From assembly GCA_017979445.1 (NCBI GenBank), contig JADQWC010000178.1:1-64000 (forward strand): a stretch of DNA of 64,000 nucleotides, in the 5' to 3' direction. Positions 44,964-46,396 of the stretch are shown piece by piece (within the stretch, counting starts at the first letter, position 1; every line of letters begins with the position of its first letter). This DNA is from Akebia trifoliata. Its lineage: Eukaryota > Streptophyta > Magnoliopsida > Ranunculales > Lardizabalaceae. The translations under genes were made by a program, and so were the position numbers. A model generated the notes under the pieces. That model had not been told where the DNA came from, did not search any database, and saw only the letters and a list, made by a program, of their open reading frames with translations.

Positions 44964-46396
44964 CCCCTCCTAAGATCACTCTCCGGGCCTACTGAGGTAG
45001 ATAAACCATTGATCATCGAACTTACAGTTGCAGCAATGGAAGAGTTTATAAGAATGACCTAACTAGGAAAAACCCTTAGGGATGCGTGACCTTAACGATG
45101 CTTATGAGATTCTAAGTGAAGATGAGTACATACAAACATTCCCGAGGGGAATTGGACCAAAACTATTTGGATTGAAATCAGAAGCTTCTCGAGAAACTGT
45201 CGTTGTTATCATGAATCACATTAACCTTGTTGAGATCCTTATGGATGTGAATCAGTGGTCCACCGTGTTTTCTAACATTGTTTCAAAAGCAACAACTCTT
45301 GAAGTCGTATCAATAGGCGTAGCAGAAAACTACAATGGAGCCCTCCAAGTGATGACAACAGAATTTCAAGTCCCTTCACCTATTGTTCTGACTCGAGAGA
45401 GTTTCTTTGTAAGGTATTGTAAACAACATGCTGAGGGAATTTGGACGGTGGTCGATGTTTCCTTGGATCATTTGCGTCCTAGCCCGATATCGAGATGTCG
45501 AAGAAGGCCATCAGGTTGTTTAAATCCAAGAAATGTCAAATGGTTACTCCAAGGTTATATAGGTCGAACACGTAGAAGTGGATGATAAAGCAGTTCATAG
45601 TATATATAAAACACTGGTTAACTCCAGCCTTGGGTTTGGCGCAAAGCGTTGGGTTGCTACCCTAGATCAACAATGTGAACGCCTTGCAAGTGTTATGGCT
45701 AGTAACATACCCGCTGGAGATGTTGGTGTGATCACAAGTCAAGAAGGGCGAAAGAGTATGTTGAAGTTAGCTGAAAGAATGGTGATGAGTTTTTGTTCTG
45801 GTGTAAGTGCTTCTACTGTTCACACATGGACAACATTATCGGGAAGTGGCGCTGAAGATGTAAGGGCCATGATTGGAAAACGCATAGATGATCCCGGCAG
45901 GCCTCCTGGTATTGTGCTAAGTGCAGCTACTTCTTTCTGGCTTCCAGTCCCACCAAAGGGAGTTTTCAATTCCCTTCGCGATGAGAACTTTAAAAGTGAG
46001 TGGGACATTCTTTCTAATGGCGGTGCTGTTCAAGAAATGGCACATATTGCTAATGGTAGAGATCCTGGTAACTGTGTTTCTCTACTGCGAGTTAATACTC
46101 CAAATTCCAGTCAAAACAACATGTTGATATTACAAGAGAGTAGCACCAATGCAACAGGTCTTGGTCGATTCGGTTCCAACTGCAAAACTCTCTCTTAGAT
46201 CTGTGACAGCGGTTAACAACCATATTGCGAGTACTCTAAACAGCAAAAATCTCTCTTGGATCAGTGACAGCTGTTAACAACCATATTGCTTTTGCTCCAA
46301 CTGCAAAACTCTCTTGGATTTGTGGCGACTGCTAACAACCTCAGTGCTTACATCGTTGAAAGGATCAAAGGTATCAAAGGACAATGCATGAATTGA
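44964..46396 (+). pseudogene. Captured HD-ZIP IV homeodomain-gene fragment (START domain to C-terminus)
   Basis: Clear similarity to ATML1/PDF2/HDG-type proteins: PLLRSLSGPTEVDKPLIIEL, VAAMEEFIRM, EDEYIQTFPRGIGPK, VIMNHINLVEILMDVNQWST, NYNGALQVMTTEFQVPSP and FFVRYCKQHAEGIWTVVDVS. These are followed by VEHVEVDDKAVHSIY, AKRWVATLDQQCERLAS, GRKSMLKLAERMVMSFCSG, DDPGRPPGIVLSAATSFWLP, NGRDPGNCVSLLRVN and, near the end, DSVPTAKLSL and IVERIKGIKG. This is the lipid-binding START domain and the adjoining C-terminal region; homeodomain and leucine zipper are absent. It runs about 1.1 kb with no intron although HD-ZIP IV genes have several, so it was probably copied from spliced RNA. Frame breaks lie near 45060-45080, 45525-45575 and 46160; a 93-bp block present in element 2 is missing at 46158. 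Same strand as the element. Confidence 0.93.
46178..46347 (+). repeat. Three tandem copies of the HD-ZIP IV C-terminal segment
   Basis: Units at 46178-46228, 46241-46289 and 46299-46347, about 62 bp apart, each encode a version of TAKLSLGSVTAVNNHIA in one frame or another. Host HD-ZIP IV proteins have this segment once. The copies differ from each other, so the triplication is not recent. Confidence 0.75.

What the first reader, a model, noticed from the sequence alone, without database searches (positions are those of the whole stretch)
44964..46396. LTR retrotransposon carries an intronless host HD-ZIP IV fragment in sense orientation
Between integrase and the 3' LTR, element 3 has about 1.4 kb closely similar to ATML1/PDF2/HDG-type regulators of epidermal fate, from just before START to the C-terminus, without homeodomain or zipper. 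The related element 2 has it at the same place. It reads through positions where host genes have introns, which points to capture of spliced RNA and then amplification. If expressed, it could yield small RNAs against the host gene or a lipid-binding decoy; that part is inference.
Basis: partly seen in the sequence, partly recalled or inferred. Interest (0 to 1): 0.88.

Follow-up and report, generated by a model that had tools for sequence, protein, structure and literature searches.

The report
Retrotransposon carrying twice-captured host regulator mRNA
A plant jumping element carries an intron-free 1.4-kb piece of a host gene of the epidermis-regulator type, and that piece is a mosaic of two related host genes, most likely copied from their spliced messenger RNAs in two rounds and likely carried along since then as broken, non-coding cargo that could feed small RNAs against the host genes.

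Summary
Window 44966-46411 is the START-to-C-terminus part of an HD-ZIP IV gene, in sense, inside a complete Ty3/gypsy Tat-type element (29494-48866, target duplication CCCTA, LTR distance 0.0084). The own genome (652 Mb, plant) could be searched. A native intron-containing gene A (L027) matches the fragment exon by exon; its six introns are absent from the element. Of 55 loci read, 47 begin at the same donor position and 43 end at the same one; none reaches beyond. A DNA search scored 40 copies, all at least 94% identical, of 628 first-look candidates; 40 of 40 scored hits of the element's 3' region carry the fragment. A second native gene B (L041) donated the middle: 4 of 38 copies show no B tract, two show one short tract, 32 are A/B mosaics; B tracts cross all six B introns without introns. 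Likely history: capture of A mRNA, later overwriting by B mRNA through homology, then recombination between elements. Since capture the fragment drifts neutrally (private changes 6.6/6.5/7.1% at codon positions 1/2/3; stops in 48 of 51 copies), which speaks against a protein decoy. Exact matches of 41-63 nt to the donors leave small-RNA action open; it was not testable.

The parts
29494..48866 (+). element 3, complete Ty3/gypsy Tat-type LTR retrotransposon, 19,373 bp
   Evidence: TG...CA LTRs, TSD, RNase H / second RNase H / integrase hits
29489..29493 (.). target-site duplication CCCTA, left copy
   Evidence: sequence
48867..48871 (.). target-site duplication CCCTA, right copy
   Evidence: sequence
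29494..31551 (+). 5' LTR of element 3
   Evidence: K2P to 3' LTR 0.0084, 17 differences in 2046 aligned (which used ends one base off)
46764..48866 (+). 3' LTR of element 3
33703..34899 (+). extra ORF upstream of gag, DUF7745 (8.7e-11), Plant mobile domain below its cut-off
36613..39810 (+). long frame in the gag-protease region, with a G-patch match
   Evidence: G-patch 2.9e-06; the gag-protease naming is by position
40948..43150 (+). RNase H, second RNase H (RVT_3) and integrase, in broken frames
43531..44965 (+). element non-coding stretch between pol and the captured piece
   Evidence: aligns to the same stretch in sister elements
44966..46411 (+). captured host piece (CAP): HD-ZIP IV START to C-terminus plus about 21 nt of 3' UTR, A/B mosaic, pseudogenised
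45428..46158 (+). main part of CAP derived from gene B (donor CDS about 463-1191)
   Evidence: 94-99% to B exons 3-6 versus 85-88% to A
46155..46411 (+). 3' end of CAP after an internal deletion, with tandem 57-60-nt repeats of the C-terminal codons and 3' UTR of A
46412..46763 (+). element 3' region (TAIL) up to the 3' LTR
25172..26133 (+). same captured piece in element 2, shorter

Best explanation
Element 3 is a Tat-type retrotransposon whose 1.4-kb host fragment is an intron-free mosaic of two paralogous HD-ZIP IV genes; it was likely acquired when reverse transcriptase switched template first onto spliced mRNA of gene A and later, through homology to that fragment, onto spliced mRNA of gene B, and it is predicted to ride along as non-coding cargo. 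Shown: the two donor genes, the missing introns of both, the recurring junctions, the A/B tracts, many copies, neutral drift, stops and frameshifts. Inferred: (1) A mRNA was co-packaged and two template switches placed donor CDS 1-1516 between integrase and 3' LTR; (2) in a lineage that already held the A piece a B mRNA was copied in by homologous template switching, which kept the A ends; (3) recombination between co-packaged element RNAs then shuffled A and B tracts; (4) the element's own machinery amplified it, likely to hundreds of copies, with no need for a protein from the fragment; (5) any effect on the host would go through RNA (small RNAs matching A and B), not through a decoy protein. 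Step 5 is untested.
For: Donor A: seven exon blocks, 85-88% identity for the first six and 79-90% for pieces of the seventh; six introns, GT-AG, absent from the element. Donor B: exons 3-6 at 94.6/93.9/94.1/99.0% to the window piece; A and B agree at 1282 of 1494 CDS sites. Mosaic: the window copy (WE3) has 44 A/B switches against a mean of 83 and a minimum of 64 in 2000 shuffles, while A-type copies as control show 40-56 against means of 41-58. B tracts cross B introns 1-3 in L004, L005, L007, L031, L033, introns 2-6 in L018, L020, L022-L024 and 3-6 in WE3. At CDS 1-20: 160 A, 0 B, 28 other cells over 51 copies. Junctions: 47 of 55 loci begin at CDS 1-5, 43 of 55 end at 1515-1516, 38 do both, none goes beyond. 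Neutral drift: copy branch of six A-type copies dN 0.065, dS 0.073; donor A branch dN 0.004, dS 0.100; private changes 1210/18434, 1260/19373, 1022/14461 by codon position. Copies: 40 of 40 scored at 94% or more over at least 1058 of 1199 bases, the window copy included, of 628 first-look candidates. Family-wide: 40 of 40 scored TAIL hits carry CAP. B later than A: in 22 of 24 WE3-like copies the A tract CDS 260-455 has more private changes than the B tract 470-1118, means 6.7 and 4.9%.
Against: No element of this family without the fragment was found, so the switch points cannot be read against an empty site. Twelve of 55 loci do not reach the common 3' end and eight not the common 5' end; I read these as later deletions or locus edges, not shown one by one. 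The B-later test is not uniform: the short B tract 55-100 has 11.0% private changes and the short A tract 1-54 only 4.9%, and the 24 copies are not independent. On B tracts the copy-branch dN/dS is 0.55, below the 0.89 of A-type copies, so some constraint or bias on 216-221 codons is possible. One copy (L012a) still reads open for 391 aa. At CDS 1493-1516, 48 of 367 cells match B. A-type copies also match B at 24-36 sites, which I read as changes in gene A since capture. First-look candidate counts are unscored.
Confidence: 0.8

Rival explanations
1. Two independent captures, one of A mRNA and one of B mRNA, in two element lineages, later mixed by recombination between elements; no homology-guided second capture.
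For: Both donors are represented and tracts differ between copies as if recombining freely.
Against: At CDS 1-20 no cell of 188 is B and the junctions recur at A positions; no B-type junction was seen.
Confidence: 0.12
2. DNA-level gene conversion of element copies by genomic gene B.
For: Tract lengths of about 20-1050 nt would fit conversion.
Against: B tracts run across all six B introns in one copy or another without intron sequence; genomic B would bring introns or break the tract at exon ends.
Confidence: 0.05
3. The element took up a processed pseudogene of A, or of an A/B chimera, that already sat in the genome.
For: Would also give an intron-free piece; it starts inside an exon and ends about 21 nt after the stop codon.
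Against: No poly(A) directly at the 3' junction; the A-run of the window copy starts about 30 nt further on and is missing at that place in L003. Of 55 loci read 53 lie next to element sequence; for L057 and L058 no flank match was found in the short stretch held. Not all candidates were read.
Confidence: 0.1
4. The fragment encodes a selected START-PDF2_C protein that acts as a lipid-binding or dimerisation decoy for the host factors.
For: Some copies have long open frames (551 aa with one stop inside the match; 391 aa without stop at C13:11994783-11995862). B-tract copy branches have dN/dS 0.55.
Against: In-frame stops in 48 of 51 copies and frameshifting indels in the other three; even codon-position rates; shared stops, e.g. 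16 of 37 copies at CDS 428 and 11 of 34 at CDS 95. The zipper part is absent.
Confidence: 0.05
5. The fragment acts: small RNAs made from element transcripts silence or tune genes A and B, and this keeps the fragment in the family.
For: Exact matches up to 63 nt (WE3 to B) and 154 nt (L024 to B); 84% of the A segment and 81% of the B segment are covered by 21-nt exact matches to 37 sampled loci. Small RNAs on LTR-captured genes are reported in rice and sorghum (PMC3726574, passages read).
Against: No expression or small-RNA data for this genome in reach; both donor frames are open over the part read and gene A is under strong constraint (dN/dS 0.04); retention can be explained by hitchhiking.
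Confidence: 0.25

Closest known systems
Bs1 retrotransposon of maize (host gene transduction)
   Same: Plant LTR element with segments of host genes, acquired more than once (three genes; PMC13317346, passages read).
   Different: Bs1 took three different genes; here the second donor is a paralogue that replaced the inside of the first piece.
LTR-captured genes of rice, sorghum and maize
   Same: Host genes inside LTR elements, in rice many of them neutral pseudogenes, some with small RNAs (PMC3726574, passages read).
   Different: Here one fragment sits at one place in 56 read copies, likely hundreds, and is a mosaic of two paralogues.
Ogre/Retand-type Tat elements with extra ORFs and a long pol-to-3'LTR region
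   Same: Second RNase H between RNase H and integrase, extra sequence between pol and 3' LTR (PMC6317226 and PMC11963269, passages read).
   Different: [quoted passage not shown] here a sense, host-derived piece is in 40 of 40 scored members.
Retroviral oncogene transduction and recovery of src by recombination with the cellular gene (recall only; one search listed no paper on it)
   Same: A captured host piece takes in fresh host sequence by homology.
   Different: There an active gene is regained under selection; here a drifting, broken piece is renewed from a paralogue.

Membership tests
LTR retrotransposon, Ty3/gypsy, Tat clade | two LTRs with TG...CA ends and a target-site duplication | tested here: met
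   29494-31551 and 46764-48866, TSD CCCTA
LTR retrotransposon, Ty3/gypsy, Tat clade | RNase H before integrase (gypsy order) | tested here: met
   RT_RNaseH in 40948-41766, rve in 41987-43150
LTR retrotransposon, Ty3/gypsy, Tat clade | second RNase H (aRH) between RNase H and integrase, as in Ogre and Retand | tested here: met
   RVT_3 3.7e-12 in 41724-42092; definition from PMC6317226 passages; that this RNase H is of the archaeal-like kind was not tested
Ogre versus Retand sub-clade | placement in an RT-RH-INT tree | not tested
   no tree built; an extra ORF upstream of gag suggests Ogre only by recall
HD-ZIP class IV (ATML1/PDF2/HDG) gene | START and PDF2_C domains | tested here: met
   PDF2_C matched at profile 1-139 of 241
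HD-ZIP class IV (ATML1/PDF2/HDG) gene | homeodomain and leucine zipper | tested here: not met
   Pfam finds no homeodomain in the fragment ORFs; the intron-free copies listed with P0003 start at residue 258 or later. So a derived fragment, not a member gene. Donor A has a homeodomain exon
Retrotransposon transduction of a spliced host mRNA | donor gene in the genome with introns at places the copy reads through | tested here: met
   A and B, six introns each in the captured part
Retrotransposon transduction of a spliced host mRNA | host piece internal to the LTRs and multiplied with the element | tested here: met
Small-RNA source against host genes | 21-24-nt RNAs from the fragment acting on A or B mRNA | not testable with these tools
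   only shared words could be counted

The most novel reading that the evidence does not exclude
A retrotransposon family keeps refreshing a captured piece of an epidermal regulator by re-copying spliced mRNAs of its paralogues through homology, so that the family always holds a current, high-copy RNA match to the host genes; the piece works as a small-RNA shield or lever that ties silencing of the element to silencing of genes the plant cannot afford to lose.
Probability: 0.12. Interest if true: 0.93.

Novelty: new variant of a known kind. Interest (0 to 1): 0.72.

Why it matters
Transduction of host mRNA by plant LTR elements is known, but one recent survey describes it as limited to one or a few copies (PMC11963269, passage). 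Here one capture became a standing part of a large family and was then overwritten from a paralogue's mRNA, which gives a natural record of repeated RNA-level recombination between a retrotransposon and host transcripts. It also puts a high-copy, near-identical RNA match to two genes of the ATML1/PDF2/HDG2-like class into the genome, a direct test bed for whether captured pieces silence their donors or protect the element from silencing.

Tried and rejected
Rejected: protein decoy as main explanation (stops, frameshifts, even codon positions). Rejected: DNA gene conversion from genomic B (introns absent). Rejected: one capture from a pre-duplication ancestor (A-type copies are 7-11% from A, the window copy's exons 3-6 are 1-6% from B, A and B differ at 14%). 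A first reading that WE3-like copies had evolved under constraint inside the element (dN/dS 0.15-0.22 to A) was dropped when gene B was found. An earlier count said that all copies share both junctions; the recount shows this was too strong (47 and 43 of 55).

Led nowhere: PDB sequence search of the two ORFs (none; two de novo designs, E 0.0018 and 0.016); tRNA scan of the window (none, so the primer tRNA is untested); paper searches for a START or HD-ZIP capture by a retrotransposon (no listed title or abstract start describes one; PMC4696102 is about an insertion into an HD-ZIP IV gene; of all these only passages of six papers were read); species name (best listed identity to donor A is 86%). 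An element without the fragment was sought among the 40 scored TAIL hits and not found; the query came from a carrier, so relatives further off were not sampled.

Dropped rows: natives L025, L026, L027, L039, L040, L041 were left out of copy counts; L055-L059 are not in the 51-copy tallies; the tract path covers 38 copies, and the 13 and five were read by eye from their strings. Diagnostic sites deleted in a copy count as missing. Scored of first-look candidates: 40 of 628, 40 of 1761, 150 of 659, 150 of 769, 59 of 1609.

Full report
What was checked. The two open frames at the spot, 45067-45585 and 45563-46198, hit Pfam START (8.7e-25 and 3.2e-06) and PDF2_C (8.9e-56), and no homeodomain. In a protein search with the second frame 2132 proteins pass E 0.001; the 120 listed all carry START and PDF2_C, most also a homeodomain, and are mostly 81-86% identical. 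The piece lies in sense inside a complete element: LTRs 29494-31551 and 46764-48866, TSD CCCTA, LTR distance 0.0084 from 17 differences in 2046 sites. At 1.3e-8 per site and year, a rate I recall and did not test, this is about 0.3 My; element 2 comes to about 2.7 My (K2P 0.069, 5' LTR truncated). The order RNase H, second RNase H (RVT_3), integrase fits the Ogre/Retand part of the Tat clade as defined in PMC6317226 (passages).

The donor. The own genome (G000, 652.5 Mb, 878 contigs, window = contig C367) could be searched. Locus L027 on C1 is a native HD-ZIP IV gene with a homeodomain exon. Its exons match the window piece in seven blocks, and between them lie six GT-AG introns that the element lacks. 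The donor frame is open for 497 codons to the stop over the captured part. The piece begins inside an exon and ends about 21 nt after the stop codon, in the 3' UTR. Of 55 loci read (56 copies, L012 holds two), 47 begin at CDS 1-5 of my numbering and 43 end at 1515-1516, 38 do both, and none reaches further; the others are shorter, among them element 2 of the window, which ends at 1418. Fifty-three of the 55 have the element's own sequence next to the piece.

Two donors. Most copies were only 82-87% identical to A in their main block, with an excess of silent differences. A second native gene, L041 on C13, explains this: exons 3-6 of the window piece are 94.6, 93.9, 94.1 and 99.0% identical to it, while A and B agree at only 1282 of 1494 CDS sites. 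At 225 A/B diagnostic sites a two-state path gives no B tract in 4 of 38 copies (L002, L003, L011, L014), one short tract in L001 and L008, and longer B tracts in the other 32. The 13 copies added read by eye as mosaics; of the five, L058 and L059 read as A and three as mosaics. The window copy WE3 alternates A and B, with an A tract at CDS 254-462 between B tracts, and has 44 switches against a mean of 83 and a minimum of 64 in 2000 shuffles; the six A-type copies serve as control and show no clustering (40-56 switches, shuffled means 41-58). B tracts cross B introns 1-3 (for example L004, L031) and 2-6 (for example L020) with no intron in the copy. At CDS 1-20 there are 160 A, 0 B and 28 other cells over 51 copies; at CDS 1493-1516 there are 273 A, 48 B, 46 other.

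Order of events. The A ends and recurring junctions say that A came first. Inside WE3-like copies the A tract 260-455 has 289 private changes in 4334 cells, and the B tracts 470-800 and 800-1118 have 331 in 6873 and 332 in 6557; the A tract is higher in 22 of 24 copies. Short tracts are noisy and go both ways (B 55-100: 92 of 837; A 1-54: 44 of 903). Donor branches point the same way but rest on few changes: dS 0.100 for A, 0.066 for B.

Copy number and spread in the family. A DNA search with 45000-46198 lists 628 first-look candidates; the 40 scored, the window copy included, are all at least 94% identical over at least 1058 of 1199 bases. START and PDF2_C give 659 and 769 candidates with 150 scored each. 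With the full-length protein P0003 as query the listed intron-free copies start at residue 258 or later. Of the 40 scored hits of the element's 3' region (1761 candidates, query from L011), 27 lie within 1 kb of a listed hit, and the other 13 were fetched and all carry CAP, one of them (L046) as a remnant of about 280 nt. So in this sample the capture is a standing part of the family. [quoted passage not shown]

No protein. In-frame stops occur in 48 of 51 copies; L012a, L028 and L042 have none in aligned codons but carry 4, 4 and 7 frameshifting indels, though a 391-aa stretch of L012a is open. Private changes at sites where A equals B are 6.56, 6.50 and 7.07% at codon positions 1, 2, 3. For six A-type copies the branch after capture has dN 0.065 and dS 0.073, the donor branch dN 0.004 and dS 0.100. 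B tracts of 14 copies give dN 0.036 and dS 0.065 on copy branches, ratio 0.55, on 216-221 codons, which I read as bias or small numbers but which would also fit brief constraint. Stops are shared across copies (16 of 37 at CDS 428; 11 of 34 at CDS 95, in both window elements), so broken copies were likely multiplied; recurrent mutation at the same codon is not excluded.

RNA potential. WE3 shares 59 of 1492 24-mers with the A segment and 234 with B, with longest exact matches of 41 and 63 nt; over 37 sampled loci 84% of A and 81% of B are covered by exact 21-mers. This would suffice for small-RNA action in principle; there are no RNA data here. [quoted passage not shown]

Novelty. Host mRNA transduction by LTR elements, also repeated, is known (Bs1, PMC13317346 passages). 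I found no report of a paralogue's mRNA overwriting an earlier capture, nor of a START or HD-ZIP capture, in the searches (listings, plus passages of six papers: PMC11963269, PMC13317346, PMC9289625, PMC7264820, PMC6317226, PMC3726574). That is a limited library. I call it a new variant of a known kind.

Noticed in passing
L012 (C13:11989329-11999300), two copies at 5322-6630 and 7090-8266: One locus holds the captured piece twice in tandem, separated by about 340 nt of the stretch that normally precedes it.
   Followed up: partly
46155-46411 and sister copies: The last 57-60 nt of the captured coding part are repeated head to tail, with different numbers in different copies (six blocks over that part in L036).
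   Followed up: partly
33703-34899: Between 5' LTR and gag sits a 398-aa open frame with DUF7745 and a sub-threshold plant mobile domain match, a second host-like protein in the same element.
   Followed up: no
36613-39810: The long frame of the gag-protease region contains a G-patch domain match (2.9e-06).
   Followed up: no
24119 and about 43848: Element 2 has lost a stretch from within RNase H through integrase relative to element 3, yet kept the captured piece.
   Followed up: no
35180-35641: Direct repeats with spacings of 60 and 171 bp between the extra ORF and gag.
   Followed up: no
8488-9144 and 9065-9582: Arrays of 22-bp and 29-bp units overlapping long open frames.
   Followed up: no
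53883-54249: Inverted repeat with 158-nt arms, 89% complementary, 51 nt apart.
   Followed up: no
G000 C15:6629258 and C374:37039: Copies with identical scores on a chromosome-sized and on a small contig, perhaps duplicate haplotype contigs, so copy counts may be somewhat inflated.
   Followed up: no
P0006, P0022, P0023: START-PDF2_C proteins without a listed homeodomain in Acorus and tomato; gene-model cuts or other captures.
   Followed up: no
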